Shown here piece by piece: positions 3,608-48,611 of a stretch of 48,927 nucleotides of DNA. The notes under the pieces were generated by a model. The model was given only the letters and a program-made list of their open reading frames with translations, did not search any database and had not been told where the DNA came from. How positions within the stretch are numbered: the stretch's first letter is position 1; every line of letters starts with the position of its first letter. The position numbers and the translations under genes were made by a program. Source of the DNA: Candidatus Cloacimonadota bacterium (lineage in GTDB: Bacteria > Cloacimonadota > Cloacimonadia > Cloacimonadales > Cloacimonadaceae); the NCBI GenBank assembly GCA_020532545.1, contig JAJBAW010000019.1:1-48927 (forward strand), read 5' to 3'.

Positions 3608-3859
3608 ATGATGAGATTAGAAAACATGAAATTTGGGACTCTGATCCAGGGTTTGGAACCTGACGAAGTGGTTCGCATTGTTACGAGTGAACCCATCGGG
3701 ACTGATGTGCTCATCAATACAGATGACCTTGAGGGGCCCCATTACATTTGCAAACCATTTACCCAAGAACTGGATTGGGCTGTTACCAGCACCAATCTGC
3801 TTATTAAACAGTTTGTACACAAGAACAGGGGGGGGCTATATGAATACGAAAGATATTGA
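3608..3859 (+). pseudogene. truncated helicase N-terminus (83-aa remnant)
   Basis: The first 37 or so residues (MKFGTLIQGLEPDEVVRI followed by VTSEPIGTD) resemble the extreme N-terminus of large SNF2/DEAD-type helicases found in restriction and DISARM-like defence loci, which start with a short GxxIxGLxPxxVVxIV strand pair. After that the resemblance stops, and the remaining 45 residues (from INTDDLEGPHYICKPF) match nothing I know. I read it as a deletion product: the head of a roughly 1000-residue helicase fused to a short unrelated tail. The stop lies inside the start of the next gene (20-base overlap with 3840). There is no strong ribosome site. It could still be a real small protein. Confidence 0.45.
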
Positions 3860-4991
3860 ATGGAACTTCAGATCTCTGGTCAATAGCATTGGGCAAATAC
3901 ATAGTGAGTTCAAGCAACAAGCTTTTCACAGCGTAAACACTTTGCTCACGCTCCGAAACTGGCTGATAGGCTATTACATTGCTGAATATGAGCTGAAAGG
4001 ATCGGATCGAGCAGATTACGGAGAGAAGCTCTTTGAGCGTTTGGAAGAAGAGCTAAAAAGATTTGGAGTCTCTCGCTCAAACAAGAGAGATTTATACAAG
4101 CTTCGTTTGTTTTACAACACTTACCCCCAGATTGTGGGGTCGCTGAACCCACAATTGCAAAAGCTTATCAACCATAAGCTTAGTTCTTCCTCATCAGTTA
4201 GTTCCATACTCATTGATCCATTCCCGCAGATTGTGGAGTCAATGACCCCACAATCGGACATAGCACTAAGAGAGCTAATCACAAAGCTCTCATTTACGCA
4301 TATAGAAGTCCTGATAAACATTGATGATGAGACAAAACGGCAGTTTTATGAAATTGAGTGCATCCGAGGAAACTGGTCTGTGCGAGAGCTTAAACGCCAG
4401 GTTAATTCTTTGTACTATGAGCGCAGCGGTCTTTCCACAGACAAGAAAAAGCTCTCCGAACAAACACAGCAAAAGGTAGAGATATTTAGTCCTGCGCAAT
4501 CAATCAGAGATCCCTACATCTTCGAATTCTTGGGGCTGAAACCCCTGGAAGTAATGAGCGAATCAGATCTGGAAGATCAAATATTGGATAGGCTTCAAGA
4601 GTTTTTATTGGAACTGGGGCATGGCTTCTGCTTTGAAGCCCGGCAAAAAGCCATCCTGATCGGGGATACAAATTTCTATATCGATTTGGTCTTCTACCAT
4701 AGAATCCTCAAATGCCATGTCTTGGTGGAACTCAAACTAACTGATTTTAACCATGAAAACATTGGTCAGCTCAATACTTACGTAAGCTGATATAGCAAAA
4801 ATATCAAAGAAGCCACTGATAATGAGCCTATCGGAATCCTACTCTGCACGGCAAAAAGCAACACCCTTGTGGAATATGCACTGGCAGGGATGGATAACCA
4901 TCTCTTTGTTTCGAAGTATATGCTGGAACTGCCCAGTAGGAAAGAAATGCAAAGTTTTATTGAATCTCAAATTCATGAGGAGATGGAATGA
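3840..4991 (+). pseudogene. DUF1016 (YhcG-type) PD-(D/E)XK nuclease with internal TGA
   Basis: From the ATG at 3840 (MNTKDIEWNFRSLVNSIG) the frame encodes the DUF1016 N-terminal helical domain and then the PD-(D/E)XK domain: FYIDLVFYHR and VELKLTD, with the catalytic Asp and the ExK at about residues 286-302. A TGA at 4788-4790 stops translation after QLNTYVS. The same frame continues for 66 codons (YSKNIKEATDNEPIGILLCT...) with the normal family C-terminus and ends at 4991. The TGA sits where relatives usually have Trp, so a single TGG to TGA change explains it. The family occurs beside restriction and other defence genes. The shortened 316-residue product keeps the catalytic residues but loses the last strands, so activity is doubtful. 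Confidence 0.8.
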
Positions 4992-5255: not shown

Positions 5256-6383
5256 ATGACAAAACAGCGCTTTCCTTTTATGGCGATCATGGGTCAGGAA
5301 GAATTAAGCTTGGCTTTGATCTTTAATCTCGTCAATCCCCAGATCGGGGGAGTATTGATTCGGGGCACCAAGGGCACAGGCAAAAGCACCGCTGTCTATG
5401 GTTTACCACAAATTGCTCCTTTGATTACCGTCCATCAATCCTGTCCTTACAACTGTTTACCTGAAGAGCCCGAAAATTGGTGCTCCTTCTGCAAAAACCA
5501 ACAGACCCACACAGTTCTAGAGCAAGAAATCGAGGTAGTGAATCTTCCCATGAACATCGCGGAGGAAAATCTGTTGGGCAGAATCGATGTGGAGAGGCTG
5601 CTCAAAACCGGGGAAAAGGCCTTTGTTCCCGGCCTCATTGCCAAAGCTCACCGGCAGATTTTGTATATTGATGAGGTAAATCTAATTCCGGATCACATCA
5701 CCGATAGCCTCCTGGACGTAGTAGCTTCGGGAGTGAACATCATAGAGCGCGAAGGCTTTTCCGTGCAGCATCCCGCCAGGTTTCTGCTCATTGGCACCAT
5801 GAATAGTGAAGAAGGCGAGCTCCGGCCTCAGATATTGGACCGTTTCCCCCTTTCTGTGACGATCAACACCATCACTAAAATCGAAGACCGGGAAGAGATC
5901 ATCCGGCGCAACTTTGCTTTTGAAGAGAATCCCGCCCGCTTTGTGGAGGGTTTTAGTCAGGTCAACGAACTCATGATGAACTCCATCCTGCAGGCCCGGG
6001 CCTTGCTCCCTGAGACTACCATCTCTCAAGAATTGGTGCGCAAAATGCTCGATTTCTGTGTGCATTTTGCCATCGATGGGCACCGCTCTGAGCTTGTCAT
6101 CGTCAAAACTGCCCGCACCTATGCCGCTCTGGAATTGAAGCAGCAAGTAGAGCTCAAACATCTCAAAATGGCGATGAAGCTCACCCTGCTGCACCGCACC
6201 CGTGATGGCGGCCTGAAGAAACCCGTAACCTTCTCTGATATCGAAACCTGGTTTGAAGGCGTGAAAGAGGATAGCGCGCCGGAAAGCACCTTCTCTCTGG
6301 ACTATAATCCAGAGAATCTGTCGCTGCTCAAAGGAGGTTATCTTAGCCCATCAAAAAAATCAGAGAAAGCCTCGCAGAGCTAA
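5256..6383 (+). CDS. magnesium/cobalt chelatase-type AAA+ ATPase (ChlI/ChlD N-terminal part)
   Basis: The 375-aa zero-frame product is a ChlI/BchI-like AAA+ ATPase: Walker A GTKGTGKS near residue 38, four cysteines (CPYNC, CSFC) near residues 68-80, Walker B ILYIDEVN near residue 139, the sensor strand FLLIGTMNSEEGELRPQ, and an arginine-finger region after it. Such ATPases drive metal insertion into tetrapyrroles or act in MoxR/VWA-type assembly systems. The ATG follows a purine-rich site, 2 bases after the preceding fragment. The last 11 codons (SPSKKSEKASQS) lie after an A7 tract and inside a hairpin, so ribosomes may shift to frame -1 here and make a longer protein (see the recoding signal). 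No large CobN/BchH subunit is in the window, so the substrate is unknown. Confidence 0.88.
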   Translation: MTKQRFPFMAIMGQEELSLALIFNLVNPQIGGVLIRGTKGTGKSTAVYGLPQIAPLITVHQSCPYNCLPEEPENWCSFCKNQQTHTVLEQEIEVVNLPMNIAEENLLGRIDVERLLKTGEKAFVPGLIAKAHRQILYIDEVNLIPDHITDSLLDVVASGVNIIEREGFSVQHPARFLLIGTMNSEEGELRPQILDRFPLSVTINTITKIEDREEIIRRNFAFEENPARFVEGFSQVNELMMNSILQARALLPETTISQELVRKMLDFCVHFAIDGHRSELVIVKTARTYAALELKQQVELKHLKMAMKLTLLHRTRDGGLKKPVTFSDIETWFEGVKEDSAPESTFSLDYNPENLSLLKGGYLSPSKKSEKASQS

Positions 6384-6405
6384 GTCTTTTATTAGCAGCC
6401 GAGGC
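6331..6405 (+). promoter_or_regulatory. candidate programmed -1 ribosomal frameshift signal
   Basis: Three elements lie in the expected order. An SD-like AAGGAGGTT is at 6331-6339. The heptamer A_AAA_AAA is at 6353-6359, in the correct phase for zero-frame codons TCA AAA AAA. A hairpin follows: GCCTCG 6369-6374 pairs with CGAGGC 6400-6405, and GCTAA 6379-6383 pairs with TTAGC 6392-6396. The zero-frame stop TAA (6381-6383) is within the stem. A -1 slip gives ATC AGA GAA and continues for 105 codons. Spacings (about 14 bases SD to slip site, 9 bases slip site to stem) are close to those of bacterial -1 sites such as dnaX. Programmed frameshifting is known in chlD genes. Confidence 0.75.
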
Positions 6406-6676
6406 AAACGATGACTACATCGACAGGCGTAGTCTGGTCAAGCTCATCCTGAAGCGAGTAGAAAACAAAGAATTATCCGAGGCAGAACTCAGCGAACTGA
6501 AGTACTGGGACACAATCTGGCAGTATTATGAAAAGCAGCCGGAGACCATCCAGGCTCTGCAGGGAATATTCTATCTGCTTTCTCATCCGGATTTGAAGAA
6601 TATCGCGTTTTCTCCAGAAGAACTCATGTCAGCCAAGGGCCCACTCCGTTCAATGAACTGTTCATGGATCCACTGA
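6347..6676 (+). CDS. frame -1 extension of the AAA+ gene (linker domain)
   Basis: This frame begins after an in-frame TAG at 6344 and has no ATG, GTG or TTG start near the AAGGAGG site, so it is unlikely to be an independent gene. It is reached from the chelatase gene by a -1 slip at 6353-6359. It reads IRESLAELSLLLAAEAND... and then a helical, acidic segment (WDTIWQYYEKQPETIQ..., FYLLSHPDLKNIAFSPEEL). This resembles the linker between the AAA+ and VWA parts of ChlD-like proteins. It ends at a TGA (6674-6676) that overlaps the VWA ORF by 13 bases. The frameshift product to this stop would be 473 aa. A further -1 change near 6637-6643 would continue smoothly into the VWA domain. Confidence 0.6.
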   Translation, partial: PIKKIRESLAELSLLLAAEANDDYIDRRSLVKLILKRVENKELSEAELSELKYWDTIWQYYEKQPETIQALQGIFYLLSHPDLKNIAFSPEELMSAKGPLRSMNCSWIH

Positions 6677-7707
6677 GCCTGAAAGAGATGGTTAAAATCG
6701 TCTTAAACTATGTGAAAAACAGGCTGGTGGTCGATAAATCATTAAAAACCATAATTAAAGGGATCAGCGGGCAATCCGCAGAGCAGGAAACGACCTTTGA
6801 TGTGGAGCTAAAATCCAGCGAGATCAGGAAGATAGGCTTCAAACGCAAGAAATTGGCCAGCCTCAAACATAATGCTGCCATGAGTTCATCCGGCGCACCC
6901 GTCGTCTTTTGGACCTCAAAATACGGTTCAAATGCCAAACCCGATATCTATCAGAGCCTGAAAGCCGCTATTCTGGAGGGAGCATTTGTCCGGGATCCTT
7001 TTCAGATCGGGATCCAGCGTCGGCATTTCCGCTATCCCGTCTATCAGCAAAAGCAGAATTTCAATATCATGCTGGTGCTGGATATCAGCAATTCCGTGAA
7101 GTGGATCCTCAAATTCATGGAAAAGATCATTGCGATGCTCACCGCAGAGGCCAACGCTGCCAAAGATAAACTGGGACTAATTATCTTTAATGATGACCGG
7201 GCGCAGATCATGCACTATCCCACCAGCAATGTGCGGCACATAGTAGGAACGATAAACACGCTTTCGCCAAAGGGTAAGACGCCTCTGGCCCAAGGGGTGA
7301 AGCTGGCTCTGCAGACCCTGGAGCACAGCAGATTTCAGGTGACCGGCATGTCCAATGCCATAGTGCTGCTCTCAGACTGTTTTCCCGAACCAATCACCGG
7401 AGAATACCCGGATCAAATGGATGAACCGGCCTGCCAAGAGCTACTGCATGTAGCTGATAGAGTGGCAGATGCCAAGATCAAATTGCTCATTTTGAACCCC
7501 AGCATCAGGACAATGCCACATTATGAAAAGCTCATTGGTTACAGATTGGGCACACTGGCTGCCGAGCGGGCCAAAGGCAGCTTCCTGAATCTGGTGGCAG
7601 ATGTGCAGCAGGCTCCAATGTCCGCGCAGAGAGATTATGTATTATCCGATCAAATGCTGAATAAATTCCTGGAAGGGATTAATGAATTCAGGATGGACTG
7701 CAGATAA
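6664..7707 (+). CDS. VWA domain protein, chelatase subunit D-like C-terminal part
   Basis: The 347-aa ORF holds a von Willebrand A domain with a complete MIDAS site: DISNS (near residue 142), the TPLAQG threonine (near 205) and LLSDC (near 240). The layout KGKTPLAQGVKLALQTL is typical of the ChlD/BchD/CobT family, in which the VWA part follows an AAA+ part. A basic segment (KIGFKRKKLASLKHN) precedes it, as in ChlD. The ATG at 6664 has no ribosome site, and the frame is open upstream with a matching continuation (PTPFNELFMDPLSL). So this may be the C-terminus of a longer polyprotein reached by frame change rather than a free-standing gene; reinitiation after the overlapping stop at 6676 is the alternative. 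Confidence 0.8.
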   Translation: MDPLSLKEMVKIVLNYVKNRLVVDKSLKTIIKGISGQSAEQETTFDVELKSSEIRKIGFKRKKLASLKHNAAMSSSGAPVVFWTSKYGSNAKPDIYQSLKAAILEGAFVRDPFQIGIQRRHFRYPVYQQKQNFNIMLVLDISNSVKWILKFMEKIIAMLTAEANAAKDKLGLIIFNDDRAQIMHYPTSNVRHIVGTINTLSPKGKTPLAQGVKLALQTLEHSRFQVTGMSNAIVLLSDCFPEPITGEYPDQMDEPACQELLHVADRVADAKIKLLILNPSIRTMPHYEKLIGYRLGTLAAERAKGSFLNLVADVQQAPMSAQRDYVLSDQMLNKFLEGINEFRMDCR

Positions 7708-13828: not shown

Positions 13829-14746
13829 TCATTTCCTCAGTAGCAGATAGATAAAGAAAGGACAGCCGATGGCTGCGGTGATCACGCCCACGGGGAGCTC
13901 GATCCCGGCCATATTCTTGGCCAGAAAGTCTGCCGCCAGCAGGAAACTGGCACCAAAGAGCAGGCTGCCGGGATAGATGCGCTTTTGATTGCTAAAGCCC
14001 AGCAGGCGCATGATATGAGGTGTGATGAGCCCCACAAAACCGATGATGCCGGCATAGGAAACCACAATGCCGATGATGAGCGAAGTGACCACAAAGATCT
14101 GCTGGCGCAGACGGTGCACTTCGATGCCCACGCTGGCGGCATAAAGATCGCCACTGCTCATGATGTCCAGGGCGCGGCTCTTCAGATAGAGCCAGATCAA
14201 AAGGATCAAAATCACGATCGAAAGCAGGACAAAGACCCGGTATTCTGAGTAGCTGAAGATGCGTCCCAGATTTCCCATCAAAGTGCTGAGTATGAGCACA
14301 GTATCTTCCCGCCGCAGATACATCATCAGCGAGATGCCGGCCGAGAAAAACATGCCTACGATCACCCCTGCGATGATCAATCTGCCCCGGTCAAAGGCGC
14401 CCCGTCTTTGCGCCAGACGCCAGACCAAAACCATGGTGATCAGCGCACCGATAAAGCCGCCCAAAGGCATGAGGATATAGAGCCCCATACTGGCAAAAAG
14501 GATGCTGCCAAACGCAGAACCGGATGAGATGCCCAGGATGTAGGGCTCGGCCAGGGGATTTGCCAGCATGAGCTGATACACAGAGCCGATGGCGGACAGG
14601 CTCATGCCCGTGACCAGGGTGAGCAAAAGCCGCGGAATACGCACCTGCCAGAAGATATTGGAGCTGGGATTGCCCCAAAAAAGATAGAGCGCCACTAATG
14701 CTATGCTGCCCAGAGCGATCAGGACCCAAACCAGGGTTTTCTTCAC
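13829..14746 (-). CDS. FecCD-family ABC transporter permease
   Basis: The product is a polytopic membrane protein of the BtuC/FhuB/FecCD family that imports cobalamin, haem or iron-siderophores: the family signature RIPRLLLTLVTGMSLSAIGS...QLMLANPLAEPYILG is near the N-terminus, then eight or nine further helices, and GFVGLITPHIMRLLG near residue 245. The GTG at 14746 overlaps the stop codon of the binding-protein gene in a GTGA arrangement; a second GTG at 14764 is possible. Length is about 305 aa. The ATP-binding subunit, which normally follows, is absent; the gene is followed by a MITE-like repeat. The ligand is unknown. Confidence 0.9.
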   Translation of the reverse strand: MKKTLVWVLIALGSIALVALYLFWGNPSSNIFWQVRIPRLLLTLVTGMSLSAIGSVYQLMLANPLAEPYILGISSGSAFGSILFASMGLYILMPLGGFIGALITMVLVWRLAQRRGAFDRGRLIIAGVIVGMFFSAGISLMMYLRREDTVLILSTLMGNLGRIFSYSEYRVFVLLSIVILILLIWLYLKSRALDIMSSGDLYAASVGIEVHRLRQQIFVVTSLIIGIVVSYAGIIGFVGLITPHIMRLLGFSNQKRIYPGSLLFGASFLLAADFLAKNMAGIELPVGVITAAIGCPFFIYLLLRK

Positions 14747-15594
14747 TGGGTGCGTCTTTCCCACAAAGCGTAGATTTCCTGCAATCCGATCATGCCCACA
14801 ATAACGCGCGGGCCCGCTCTCTGAATGATGTCTGGATCGATATCGCCCTCAAAGAAAACCATCACATTGCGGATGGCGGGGATGTTTCCCCAGCCTTTGC
14901 GCGAGAGCACGCCTTCCAGAGAATCCTGAGAATAGCAGATGATGATGTCCGGATTCGCCTGAATCACGTCCTCAGCCTTGATCCTGGAATAATCTCGCTC
15001 CAAAGTCCCAAAGATATTGTTCCCTCCGGCCGTCTCGATCAATTCGCCCACGAAGGAATTATCCGCCACACTCATCAAGGGATCGCGGTAGATTTCCAGA
15101 TACACTTTGGGCACAGGGCGCCCTTTGGCCATGTCTTTAACCTTCTCAATGTGCTCTGCGATAGTGCTTACCAGCTCACGGCCCTTATCTTCTCTACCGA
15201 TGATTTTGGCGATGCGGGTGATCTCGGTTTGCATTTCTGCCAGGGTTTTGGGATAGGAACTCTCCACCCGGATACCGAGCTTGCGCAGATCCTCCGCGAT
15301 GGATTCCTGCTCCAAAGCACTGGTAAAGACGATCTCAGGATTCAGGTTCAGGACCTGCTCCATCTTGACCGCACCAAAATTGCCCACAATCTCTTTTCCC
15401 TGGAGCTCAGCAGGGTAGTTGCATTCCTGGGTGATGCCCACGATCTTGTCTGCAGATCCCAAAGCTGCAATGATCTCTGCAATTTCCGGGGAAAGAACTA
15501 CATAGCGGCCGGCATTGCCCTGTTTGGAACTGTGGCAACTGGATAGTGTGCTCAGGATGATCAGGATCAACCCGATGTAATATAGATATTTCAT
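14743..15594 (-). CDS. BtuF/FecB-like periplasmic binding lipoprotein
   Basis: The ATG at 15594 (after GAGGTTTTT) gives a 283-aa protein with a lipoprotein signal MKYLYYIGLILIILSTLSSC (lipobox LSSC). The body is a helical-backbone binding protein of the FecB/BtuF class: VVLSPEIAEIIAALGSADKI, GNFGAVKMEQVLNLNPEIVF and IQANPDIIICYSQDS are typical blocks. It would deliver cobalamin, haem or an iron chelate to the permease encoded next, with which it overlaps by 4 bases. The open frame runs upstream to 15729, but that part is not a signal peptide. I saw no B12 riboswitch box upstream. Confidence 0.88.
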   Translation of the reverse strand: MKYLYYIGLILIILSTLSSCHSSKQGNAGRYVVLSPEIAEIIAALGSADKIVGITQECNYPAELQGKEIVGNFGAVKMEQVLNLNPEIVFTSALEQESIAEDLRKLGIRVESSYPKTLAEMQTEITRIAKIIGREDKGRELVSTIAEHIEKVKDMAKGRPVPKVYLEIYRDPLMSVADNSFVGELIETAGGNNIFGTLERDYSRIKAEDVIQANPDIIICYSQDSLEGVLSRKGWGNIPAIRNVMVFFEGDIDPDIIQRAGPRVIVGMIGLQEIYALWERRTQ

Positions 15595-15599
15595 AAAAA

Positions 15600-16078
15600 C
15601 CTCGTAAATCGTCTGAAGGATTAGTACTTTCATGGGCGGGGAATGGGGGGTTTTTGTCAAGGTGAATTTGGGAGAGGCAGGAAAGTTTAGGGGTTCGAGG
15701 GAAGGGAGGGTTCGGGTTAAACGGATCAAACGAATATAGTCCGGAGGACGGCAGGCGAATGCCTATAGCCCAGCAGTTAACTGCTGGGGGTCGATGTTCG
15801 CGTGACACCAGAGTCCGGAGGACGGCACCTGATGTATAAGGCTCGTACCGAACATGAAACCTGCCTCTGGAGCGTAGAGATATATTGGTTTGGTCTTGGA
15901 TTAAGTGTCGTCCTGCACTACGTTCCGGACTCGGGAATCCACCTGCGTGCCAACCCAGCAGTAAACTGCTGGGCTATAGCGATAAACGCTGTCGTGCTCC
16001 GCACTCAAAAGGCTGCACTGATAAACGGCTTCCTTATTCCGCACTTATTGGACCACATCTGCCCCACCTTCAACTGCC
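15600..16078. repeat. repeat-rich intergenic stretch with REP-like palindromes
   Basis: There is no credible gene. Two palindromes, CCCAGCAGTTAACTGCTGGG (15769-15788) and CCCAGCAGTAAACTGCTGGG (15954-15973), are inverted copies of one another, each flanked by CTATAG on one side. Around them AGTCCGGAGGACGGCA (15738 and 15811) and its relative GTGCTCCGCACT (about 16004) recur. This looks like a family of short interspersed palindromic repeats. Confidence 0.6.
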
Positions 16079-41327: not shown

Positions 41328-42872
41328 TCAGTGCCAGTATTTACGGTCCAGAGTACGGTATTGAATGGCTTCGCTGATATGTTCGCTGCTAATCTCTTTC
41401 AAGCCCTCAAGATCGGCAATGGTGCGCGCTACCTTGAGAATGCGGTCAAAAACCCGGGCGGAATAGCCCATTTTGTCGATCGCGTTTTGCATCAAGGCGT
41501 GGCTGGCCTCATCCATAATGCAGAATTTGCGCATCATCTTGCTATTCATCTGGCTGTTATTGAAGATGCCATGGTCTTGAAAACGGAGGTGTTGGACATC
41601 GCGCGCCTTATTCACCCTTTGCCGGATCGTGGCAGAGGTATCCCCGGAAGGCAGGGCTGCCAAATCCGCATAGTTCACGGCTGGCACTTCCACATGAATG
41701 TCGATTCTATCCAGCAGAGGGCCCGAAACGCGGTTCCGATAGCGATCCACCGCGCCACGCTCACAAGTGCATTTGTGATTGGGGATATTGGCGCCAAAAT
41801 AGCCGCAAGGACAGGGATTCATGGAGGCGATCAGCATAAATTCGGCCGGGAAAGTGAGGCTGGTAGTAGCCCGGGCGATGGTAACCACACCATCTTCCAG
41901 GGGCTGACGCAATACTTCCAGCACGGTGCGCTTGAATTCCGGCAGCTCATCCAGGAACAAAACCCCTCTGTGAGAAAGACTTACCTCTCCTGGTTTGGGG
42001 AAGGCACCACCGCCGATAAGTGCAACGTCACTTATCGTGTGATGTGGACTGCGAAACGCTCTGGTAGTAAGGATTCCGTTCTTAAAATCTTTGGAAAAAC
42101 CTGCTACGCTGTGGATCTTGGTAGATTCCAGAGCTTCGTCAAGAGTCAGTTCGGGAAGGATGGTAGGTACACGTCTGGCCAGCATGGTTTTACCAGAGCC
42201 AGGAGGGCCAATCATCAGGAGGTTGTGCCCTCCCGCTGCGGCCACTTCCAAAGCGCGTTTTACCTGAAATTGCCCCTTCACATCATGCATATCGAGCGGA
42301 AAGTCGTTGAGCACCTGGAAGATCTTGTCTCTATCCACCGTGGCAGGCGGAATGGTGATTTCGCCTTTCAGGAATTGCACAGTCTCATAGAGTGAGGTCA
42401 CCGGAATCACGGTGAGACCTTCTATAATAGCGGCTTCTTCAGCATTTTCATGAGGCACGATCAAGAGGTCCAGATCATCGCGTTTGGCGGCGATAGCGAT
42501 GGGCAAGACGCCATCCACGGGACGCACATTGCCATCCAGAGAGAGCTCGCCGATGATGCCGATCTTCTTCAGAGCAGCCTCTGGCACCCCATCATTATTC
42601 ATCATGATCGAGATCGCAATGGGCAGATCCAGCGAAGAGGAATCCTTTTTGATATCCGCCGGAGCTAAGTTGATGGTATAACGCCCGGTATGATAGCTCA
42701 GTTTGCTATTGCGGATGGCGGCAAAGACCCTGTCCTTGCTCTCTTTCACAGAGTTTGAGGGCATGCCCACGATATTGACGTTGTGCTGCATATTGCCATC
42801 GCGGTCACACTCCACGGAAACCTGAAGCGCATCTATGCCCAAGGTGGTGTATGTCAGTGCAATTCCGACCAT
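41328..42872 (-). CDS. comM: ComM/YifB family Mg-chelatase-like ATPase (intact copy)
   Basis: The 514-aa protein has the Lon-like N-terminal domain (MVGIALTYTTLGIDALQVSV), the AAA+ core with Walker A GPPGSGKTML (near 222) and Walker B GVLFLDELPEF (near 304), the zinc-type CPCGYFG...CTC motif and the C-terminal helical domain ending LDRKYWH. ComM is a hexameric branch-migration helicase for integrating DNA in natural transformation. ATG 42872 has AAGGATAGTTTA before it; the frame is open to 42887. The first two-thirds are repeated at 47664, with only three residue changes. A scrap of the upstream gene precedes it (42901-42947). Confidence 0.94.
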   Translation of the reverse strand: MVGIALTYTTLGIDALQVSVECDRDGNMQHNVNIVGMPSNSVKESKDRVFAAIRNSKLSYHTGRYTINLAPADIKKDSSSLDLPIAISIMMNNDGVPEAALKKIGIIGELSLDGNVRPVDGVLPIAIAAKRDDLDLLIVPHENAEEAAIIEGLTVIPVTSLYETVQFLKGEITIPPATVDRDKIFQVLNDFPLDMHDVKGQFQVKRALEVAAAGGHNLLMIGPPGSGKTMLARRVPTILPELTLDEALESTKIHSVAGFSKDFKNGILTTRAFRSPHHTISDVALIGGGAFPKPGEVSLSHRGVLFLDELPEFKRTVLEVLRQPLEDGVVTIARATTSLTFPAEFMLIASMNPCPCGYFGANIPNHKCTCERGAVDRYRNRVSGPLLDRIDIHVEVPAVNYADLAALPSGDTSATIRQRVNKARDVQHLRFQDHGIFNNSQMNSKMMRKFCIMDEASHALMQNAIDKMGYSARVFDRILKVARTIADLEGLKEISSEHISEAIQYRTLDRKYWH

Positions 42873-42947
42873 TAAACTATCCTTCACAAGTTCATTTTAT
42901 TTATATCGCACAGTTTGAGAGCTTTGCTATTGCGTCAAGAAGATTTT
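42034..42947. repeat. 914-bp direct repeat, copy A
   Basis: This block holds the 5' two-thirds of comM plus 45 bases of the tail of an upstream gene. It is collinear with 47698-48611 (same length, no net indel, roughly 90% identical overall, with a nearly identical stretch around 42490-42640). The tail reads NQNLLDAIAKLS where copy B has NENLLDAKAKLS, part of a real gene there. Confidence 0.9.
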
Positions 42948-47378: not shown

Positions 47379-47697
47379 CCATATTCTCCTCTATTATGTG
47401 CTTATCACTATATGACCATTAAAGTAATACATGTAATAAAGGTCAAGTAAAAGATACTCTTTTCGTGTGTTTCTATCGACATCAATATAATGTATCATGA
47501 TTTTTAGCAATTTCATGACATTATGTCTCATAGTCCCGGCATGTCATTTCATGTCGGCATCTTAGCGCTGCTCGGAATCACTTTCTGTAGGGCGGTATCC
47601 CGCTGCTTCAAATGGCAAAGCGGCAGGGATGGCGAGCTGTTCTCTATTTACACCTACTATCTGTCAGCCCACCCTAATGTCCATAGCTACGTCCGAG
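47379..47697. other. intergenic region before the comM copy
   Basis: Nothing gene-like. A CCCGGCATGTCATTTCATGTCG stretch (in parts) near 47530 is a small imperfect palindrome. The left edge of the 914-bp repeat is at 47698. Confidence 0.4.
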
Positions 47698-48536
47698 ATC
47701 GTGTGGTGAGGACTGCGAAAGGCTCTGGTAGTAAGGATTCCGTTCTTAAAATCTTTGGAAAAACCGGCTACACTATGGATCTTGGTGGATTCCAGAGCTT
47801 CGTCCAAAGTGAGCTCAGGCAGGATGGTGGGTACGCGCCGGACCAGCATGGTTTTACCAGAGCCAGGAGGCCCGATCATCAGCAGGTTATGCCCTCCCGC
47901 TGCGGCCACTTCCAGAGCGCGTTTTACCTGAAATTGCCCCTTTACATCATGCATATCCAAAGGAAAGTCATTGAGCACCTGGAAGATCTTCTCTCTATCC
48001 ACAGTGGCAGGCGGAATGGTGATTTCGCCTTTCAGGAATTGCACGGTCTCCCAGAGCGAGGTCACGGGAATCACGGTAAGTCCTTCTATGATAGCCGCTT
48101 CTTCAGCATTTTCATGAGGCACGATCAAAAGGTCCAGATCATCGCGTTTGGCGGCGATAGCGATGGGCAAGACGCCATCCACAGGACGCACATTGCCATC
48201 CAGAGAGAGCTCGCCGATGATGCCGATCTTCTTCAGAGCAGCCTCTGGCACCCCATCATTATTCATCATGATCGAGATCGCAATGGGCAGATCCAGTGAA
48301 GAAGAGTCCTTTTTAATATCCGCCGGCGCCAAGTTGATGGTATAACGCCCGGTATGATAGCTCAGTTTGCTATTGCGGATGGCCGCAAAGACCCTGTCCT
48401 TGCTCTCTTTCACAGAGTTTGAGGGCATGCCCACGATATTGACGTTGTGCTGCATATTGCCATCGCGGTCACATTCCACGGAAACTTGAAGCGCATCTAT
48501 GCCCAAAGTAGTGTATGTCAGTGCAATTCCGACCAT
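47664..48536 (-). pseudogene. truncated second copy of comM
   Basis: From ATG 48536 (AAGGATAGTTTA ahead) the frame matches the first 284 residues of the intact comM product except for three changes (Tyr to Trp in SLWETV, Asp to Glu in VDREKIF, Ala to Val in TMLVRRV). After SDVA it ends MDIRVG and stop. Walker A is present; Walker B and the C-terminal half are gone. It is expected to be non-functional but could make a dominant-negative fragment. Confidence 0.9.
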
Positions 48537-48611
48537 TAAACTATCCTTTTCCTGTTCTTTTTCTTTGTCTTGCATGCTTTGAGAGCTTTGCTTTTGCGTC
48601 AAGAAGATTTT
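47698..48611. repeat. 914-bp direct repeat, copy B
   Basis: This block is collinear with 42034-42947 (offset 5664 bases) and in the same orientation. Its upper end includes the tail of the partial gene at 48541. Confidence 0.9.

What the first reader, a model, noticed from the sequence alone, without database searches (positions are those of the whole stretch)
6331..6405. Programmed -1 frameshift cassette in a chelatase-type AAA+ gene
Seen: AAGGAGGTT, then A_AAA_AAA in the right phase, then a 6+5 bp hairpin covering the zero-frame stop. Slipping -1 opens 105 further codons with no start codon of their own. Known: chlD genes of some cobalamin-making bacteria use -1 frameshifting to make a small (ChlI-like) and a medium subunit from one mRNA, and dnaX uses the same three elements. 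Inferred: this gene does the same here, with a stop placed inside the stimulatory stem.
Basis: partly seen in the sequence, partly recalled or inferred. Interest (0 to 1): 0.8.

Follow-up and report, generated by a model that had tools for sequence, protein, structure and literature searches.

The report
Frameshifting chelatase-motor gene without a chelatase
An uncultured Cloacimonadota bacterium carries a gene whose message most likely makes a short and a long motor protein through a deliberate ribosome slip, as in some vitamin B12 enzymes, yet the metal-inserting partner and the ring-pigment marker genes looked for were not found in its genome or its relatives, so what the motor works on is unknown.

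Summary
The cassette is real: SD-like 6331-6339, in-phase A_AAA_AAA 6353-6359, two-part hairpin 6369-6405 whose inner stem holds the zero-frame stop. I compared 16 copies (window plus 15 relatives). The slip-site heptamer is A_AAA_AAA in 13, A_AAA_AAG in 2, C_AAA_AAA in 1; a stem follows; and in 15 of 15 relatives the -1 frame runs on 435-495 codons through a VWA domain. The window's "105 codons" come from a window-only break near 6622 (recent lesion or assembly error). So the gene most likely encodes a ChlI-like AAA+ protein and, by -1 frameshifting, a ChlD-like AAA+-VWA protein.

This is a known kind, fs-chlD: a published 7-A chelatase cassette shifts 10% in E. coli, and fs-chlD genes without a large subunit are described from Spirochaeta thermophila and Brevefilum fermentans. 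The cobalamin reading is not supported: CobN/ChlH, CbiC and HemC were each found in 0 of 124 genomes of the phylum. The Cloacimonadota copies form their own clade and have no consistent gene neighbour. Likeliest use: a stand-alone AAA+/VWA remodelling machine with an unknown client. Frameshifting itself was not measured, and the window's own hairpin is weak evidence when taken alone.

The parts
5256..6383 (+). zero-frame ORF, ChlI-like AAA+ ATPase, 375 aa
   Evidence: Pfam AAA_5, Mg_chelatase, AAA_lid_2; NCBIfam TIGR02442 1-318 of 641, TIGR02030 (both below the curated cut-offs); PDB ChlI 6l8d E 3.5e-80, BchI 1g8p E 1.4e-78
6331..6339 (+). SD-like element AAGGAGGTT, GGAGG ending 15 nt before the heptamer
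   Evidence: sequence; by eye in the listing GGAGG is present at the same 15-nt spacing in 11 of 16 copies
6353..6359 (+). slip site A_AAA_AAA, in phase with the zero frame
   Evidence: A_AAA_AAA in 13 of 16 copies, A_AAA_AAG in 2, C_AAA_AAA in 1
6369..6405 (+). two-part hairpin: outer 6369-6374/6400-6405, inner 6379-6383/6392-6396
   Evidence: modest in the window alone, stronger over the 16 copies
6381..6383 (+). zero-frame stop TAA, within the inner stem
6359..6676 (+). -1 frame after the slip, 105 codons plus stop: helical linker region of the long product
   Evidence: dN/dS 0.24 against G006 over 6359-6628
6600..6664 (+). stretch holding a window-only frame break (alignment puts a one-base length difference near 6622)
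   Evidence: 15 of 15 relatives have no such break
6664..7707 (+). VWA part in the third frame (first ATG 6664; frame open upstream to 6532)
   Evidence: Pfam VWA_2 E 8.9e-11; TIGR02442 382-614 of 641; PDB 2x31 magnesium-chelatase 60 kDa subunit E 3.9e-6; dN/dS 0.19

Best explanation
A frameshifted chlD (fs-chlD) gene. Most ribosomes finish the zero frame and make a ChlI-like AAA+ subunit. A fraction, helped by the downstream stem and probably by the SD-like element, slip back one base on A_AAA_AAA and make a ChlD-like protein: the same AAA+ domain, a helical linker and a VWA domain. The two products probably assemble into a mixed AAA+/VWA ring complex at a ratio set by the slip. In Cloacimonadota no large chelatase subunit and no tetrapyrrole-synthesis marker was found, so the complex most likely remodels or metalates some other client. 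Shown by comparison: slip site, stem, -1 continuation into VWA, purifying selection, absence of the three marker families. Inferred: that ribosomes slip and how often, assembly, client. In the window's own assembly the long product is interrupted by the break near 6622.
For: Heptamer kept at the 3' end of the AAA+ frame: A_AAA_AA(A/G) in 15 of 16 copies, AAA+ identities down to 46-53%. -1 frame open 435-495 codons with a DxSxS motif in 15 of 15 relatives; Pfam VWA and TIGR02442 C-terminal half in 3 of 3 relatives scanned. 60 nt after the heptamer among the best 4% of windows in the same gene in 14 of 16 copies; codon-resampling z negative in 16 of 16, mean -2.04, control places mean z -0.41 to +0.37 per gene. 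Synonymous codons conserved at the slip site: second clade 0.87 against a gene mean of 0.51, 0 of 1000 random column sets as high; window's clade 0.62 against 0.49, 17 of 1000. dN/dS 0.10, 0.24 and 0.19 in the three segments, window against G006. Published chelatase cassette with A_AAA_AAA gives 10% frameshifting in E. coli (PMC3711429, passages). PF02514, PF02570, PF01379: 0 of 124 genomes each.
Against: No frameshift, peptide or transcript was measured. The window's own stem is not significant under codon resampling (188 of 1000 as good) nor is G006's (182 of 1000), and G006 is at 13% and the window at 10% of windows in their genes. Within clades the stems do not covary beyond shuffles (65 of 500 for pairing and 178 of 500 for the score in the window's clade; no informative change in the second clade). 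G021 has C_AAA_AAA. GGAGG is missing in 5 of 16 copies. In the window's clade the most codon-conserved 20-codon window lies elsewhere, at zero-frame codon 325. The window's long frame is broken.
Confidence: 0.88

Rival explanations
1. Transcriptional slippage: RNA polymerase stutters on the A run and the altered mRNA, not the ribosome, gives the long product.
For: A runs of 7 or 8 in 13 of 16 copies (sequences); A runs are also known sites of transcriptional slippage, with n above 7 cited in PMC3711429 (passage).
Against: In the window's clade the run is 7, and G021, G072 and G050b have only 6 As. A conserved stem and an SD-like element at fixed spacing are expected for ribosomal, not transcriptional, slippage.
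Confidence: 0.05
2. Two separate coupled genes: the VWA protein starts by re-initiation at or near the zero-frame stop, and no fusion is made.
For: In 5 of 16 copies the first -1 codon is ATG, overlapping the stop, with an SD-like element upstream in 3 of those 5.
Against: In 5 of 16 copies, the window included, the first possible start is 41 to 78 codons downstream, and in 6 it is 4-9 codons away; the heptamer and stem are kept regardless. The SD-like element lies too far from those ATGs for usual initiation (recalled rule).
Confidence: 0.05
3. The gene is broken in this genome (pseudogene), and the first reader saw decay rather than recoding.
For: The window has a second break near 6622 that 15 of 15 relatives lack.
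Against: The first junction is shared by all 16 copies; all three window segments show dN/dS of 0.10-0.24 against G006. The second break may be an assembly error or a recent lesion; this concerns the second junction only.
Confidence: 0.02
4. Subunits of a cobalt or magnesium chelatase in tetrapyrrole synthesis. (This rival concerns function; it is compatible with frameshifting.)
For: NCBIfam TIGR02442 'putative cobaltochelatase' is the best match to both halves, in order; fs-chlD serves a cobalt chelatase elsewhere (PMC9227772).
Against: Scores are far under the curated cut-off (406 and 74 against 779 bits). PF02514, PF02570 and PF01379 in 0 of 124 genomes each, with 5, 7 and 11 of 14 control genomes positive. 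No consistent neighbour.
Confidence: 0.08

Closest known systems
fs-chlD / 'magnesium chelatase' frameshift cluster (PMC3711429, passages seen; PMC9227772, parts 1-3 of 4 read; Antonov 2020 MBE not held, known through PMC9227772)
   Same: ChlI-like AAA+ in the zero frame, VWA part reached by a -1 shift, A-rich slip site, downstream RNA structure; 7-A heptamer like the 10% cassette
   Different: No detected large subunit or tetrapyrrole marker here; own clade; stop position differs between its clades
Orphan fs-chlD of Spirochaeta thermophila and Brevefilum fermentans ('stage 1' in PMC9227772)
   Same: fs-chlD without cobN/chlH and without chlorophyll or B12 pathways; function called unknown there
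   Different: Different phylum; the Cloacimonadota copies form a separate clade from the four orphan Spirochaetota copies sampled here (those two named species were not fetched); phylum-wide lack of HemC, CbiC and CobN was tested here
dnaX of E. coli
   Same: SD-like element, A-run heptamer and hairpin; short and long forms sharing an AAA+ domain (signal described in PMC3711429, passage)
   Different: In dnaX the zero frame gives the long form and the shift the short one (recalled); here the shift gives the long form
Stand-alone AAA+/VWA pairs such as MoxR-type ATPases with VWA partners (recalled, not tested)
   Same: AAA+ ATPase working with a VWA protein without a chelatase large subunit
   Different: Those are separate genes of another AAA+ branch; here one gene gives both, and the AAA+ domain is ChlI-like

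Membership tests
fs-chlD | ChlI-like AAA+ domain in the zero frame | tested here: met
fs-chlD | VWA (ChlD C-terminal) part in the -1 frame, continuous after one shift | tested here: met
   15 of 15 relatives; the window itself has an extra break
fs-chlD | A-rich slippery heptamer at the frame junction | tested here: met
   15 of 16 A_AAA_AA(A/G), 1 C_AAA_AAA
fs-chlD | downstream stimulatory RNA structure | tested here: met
   over the set; window alone not significant; no covariation beyond shuffles
fs-chlD | frameshifting in vivo | not testable with these tools
   needs a reporter or proteome
CobNST-type cobaltochelatase | CobN/ChlH large subunit in the genome | tested here: not met
   PF02514 in 0 of 124 genomes; control 5 of 14
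CobNST-type cobaltochelatase | corrin / tetrapyrrole synthesis | tested here: not met
   one marker each: CbiC PF02570 0 of 124, HemC PF01379 0 of 124; import not excluded
CobNST-type cobaltochelatase | score over the curated TIGR02442 cut-off | tested here: not met
   406.2 and 74.3 bits for the two halves scanned apart against 779.45; the joined protein was not scanned

The most novel reading that the evidence does not exclude
In Cloacimonadota a ChlI/ChlD-type AAA+/VWA motor, its two subunits set by programmed frameshifting, works in organisms that make no tetrapyrroles; the chelatase motor would then have a second, unknown client, and chelatases would be one specialisation of a more general machine.
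Probability: 0.6. Interest if true: 0.7.

Novelty: new member of a known kind. Interest (0 to 1): 0.5.

Why it matters
Orphan fs-chlD genes have been described and their function called unknown (PMC9227772). This adds a separate clade in Cloacimonadota, for which the two searches made here found no relevant paper, and sharpens the question: a chelatase motor with conserved translational control is kept where HemC, CbiC and CobN/ChlH were not found in any of 124 genomes searched. It also shows how annotation can go astray: mechanical gene calling splits the gene, and family names suggest a cobaltochelatase that the genome gives no sign of.

Tried and rejected
Partner from gene neighbourhood: the first 20 kb of the window and 13 relative loci (3.3-19 kb; several contigs end close to the gene), ORFs of 90 aa or more compared by blastp at 1e-5. 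G006 shares the window's surroundings and G073/G079 share upstream genes; the other shared hits (L034 with L041; L035, L038, L042 and L043 among each other) are scattered and point to no common partner. Relatives G115 and UBA6081 were not in that comparison.

Fold of the post-slip protein of G006: mean pLDDT 63.6, pTM 0.50. The 50 rows shown of 1593 matches are VWA or I-domain proteins or larger proteins and complexes; aligned ranges are not given, and the helical N-terminal region yielded no clue.

Covariation of the stems: uninformative, because the arms hardly vary within a clade. Slid controls pair 32-43% against 85% in the window's clade and 9-76% against 97% in the second clade.

Possible pseudoknot in the second clade (loop GGCTC with downstream GAGTC, by eye in 7 of 7): not tested; the amino acids there are also conserved.

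Papers: Cloacimonadota with frameshift, 0; Cloacimon with chelatase, 1 listing not opened; fs-chlD, only PMC9227772; a search on orphan AAA+/VWA chelatase terms gave 5 listings, none opened; Brevefilum fermentans with chelatase, only PMC9227772.

Full report
What is in the window. The ORF 5256-6383 encodes a 375-aa ChlI-like AAA+ ATPase. Near its 3' end are AAGGAGGTT (6331-6339), A_AAA_AAA in phase (6353-6359) and a two-part predicted hairpin (6369-6405) whose inner stem contains the zero-frame stop. After the slip the -1 frame is open for 105 codons. Downstream, in the third frame, lies a VWA ORF ending at 7707.

Relatives. A profile of the AAA+ part finds 15 copies in 14 of 124 genomes of the phylum, the window included (E up to 1e-40); one more copy, UBA6081 (L047), came. 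All 16 were examined. The slip heptamer is A_AAA_AAA in 13, A_AAA_AAG in 2 (G072, G050b) and C_AAA_AAA in 1 (G021). In 15 of 15 relatives the -1 frame runs 435-495 codons and carries DxSxS; the aligned 15 share invariant MIDAS-type residues; Pfam calls VWA in 3 of 3 scanned and TIGR02442's second half matches in the same 3. The long product thus has the ChlD layout, AAA+ - linker - VWA.

The second break. Only the window leaves the -1 frame early. Against the nearest relative (G006, 90% identical in the AAA+ part) there is a one-base length difference near 6622. dN/dS (a simple Nei-Gojobori count) is 0.10 in the zero frame, 0.24 in the -1 part before the break and 0.19 in the VWA part, so all parts were kept by selection; the break is recent or an assembly error.

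The stem. The 60 nt after the heptamer rank among the best 4% of windows of the same gene in 14 of 16 copies; the window stands at 10% and G006 at 13%. With codons resampled and the -1-frame amino acids kept, the real stem is more stable than average in 16 of 16 copies, mean z -2.04, while control places in the same genes average -0.41 to +0.37 (4 control places for the window, 20 for each other gene). On that test the window (188 of 1000 as good) and G006 (182 of 1000) are not significant alone. By eye, four different stem sequences occupy the same place (window's clade, second clade, G072, G050b), which suggests that structure is selected. Within clades covariation does not exceed shuffles. 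Synonymous codons are unusually conserved at the slip site in the second clade (0.87 against 0.51; 0 of 1000 random column sets as high) and moderately in the window's clade (0.62 against 0.49; 17 of 1000), where the 20-codon peak lies elsewhere (the window's own sequence not included).

SD, stop and start codons. GGAGG stands 15 nt before the heptamer in 11 of 16 copies (by eye). The zero-frame stop is 21 nt after the heptamer in the 7 copies of the window's clade and 0-3 nt after it in the other 9. The first possible start in the -1 frame is at the slip itself (ATG) in 5 of 16, 4-9 codons on in 6 and 41-78 codons on in 5, the window among these. What is kept is the heptamer, not a start codon.

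What it is not. CobN/ChlH (PF02514), CbiC (PF02570) and HemC (PF01379) were each found in 0 of 124 genomes, 70 of which are at least 90% complete and at most 5% contaminated; the same searches rang in 5, 7 and 11 of 14 control genomes. Single markers on draft genomes cannot exclude use of an imported tetrapyrrole, but a cobaltochelatase has no support here. No consistent neighbour was seen among the window and 13 relative loci, and the gene is patchy: 4 of 12 genomes of the genus have it.

Known relatives. Antonov et al. 2013 (PMC3711429; passages only) report a magnesium-chelatase cluster of 23 frameshift genes and three tested cassettes: 63, 40 and 10% with 11, 9 and 7 As. Kuznetsov et al. 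2022 (PMC9227772; parts 1-3 of 4) describe fs-chlD genes without a large subunit in Spirochaeta thermophila and Brevefilum fermentans and call the function unknown. In 392 genomes of the phylum of a Spirochaetaceae MAG, 11 had matches at E up to 1e-80. Of 15 loci from that search, five look like fs-chlD by an in-phase A run near the stop and a long open -1 frame (L075, L079, L081, L082, L083; VWA not checked). Of their five genomes four lack PF02514 and one (G258) has it; of all ten Spirochaetota genomes scanned, six lack it. In a tree of 33 AAA+ sequences the 16 Cloacimonadota copies form one group (100/100, branch 0.94), and the four orphan Spirochaetota copies another (98/96). The root is a midpoint and some rows are long, so no order of descent is claimed.

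Mechanism and verdict. Comparison supports a programmed -1 frameshift that yields an AAA+ protein and an AAA+-VWA protein from one gene. That ribosomes slip, how often, and that the products assemble like ChlI/ChlD is inferred from published cassettes and homology. The client is unknown; the most economical proposal is a stand-alone AAA+/VWA remodelling machine. The kind is known; the clade, and the sharp lack of chelatase context, are what is new here.

Noticed in passing
phylum of the window, 124 genomes: HemC (PF01379) found in none, nor CbiC or CobN/ChlH, suggesting no de novo tetrapyrrole synthesis in the genomes searched.
   Followed up: partly
window 41328-42887 and 47664-48602, minus strand: Two copies of a YifB/ComM-like Mg-chelatase-family ORF (named by eye from the translation), 93.9% identical over 851 nt; the second is truncated.
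   Followed up: partly
L079, L081, L082, L083 (Spirochaetota): fs-chlD-like loci with A runs near the zero-frame stop in four genomes without PF02514; a second orphan group.
   Followed up: partly
L038-L043, L072, second clade: Loop GGCTC and downstream GAGTC are present by eye in 7 of 7 copies, a possible pseudoknot.
   Followed up: no
L039, L040, L042, L043, L072: Zero-frame stop overlaps an ATG in the -1 frame right at the slip site, so re-initiation could add a separate VWA protein in these 5 copies.
   Followed up: partly
G050: L041 and L044: One genome carries two diverged fs-chlD copies.
   Followed up: no
window 13829-15729, minus strand: FecCD-type permease and Peripla_BP_2 binding protein, a possible cobalamin or iron uptake pair; also kept beside the gene in G006.
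   Followed up: no
window 3678-4790: DUF1016/YhcG PDDEXK nuclease gene upstream, matching only 2-96 of 157 of the C-terminal model, so perhaps truncated.
   Followed up: no
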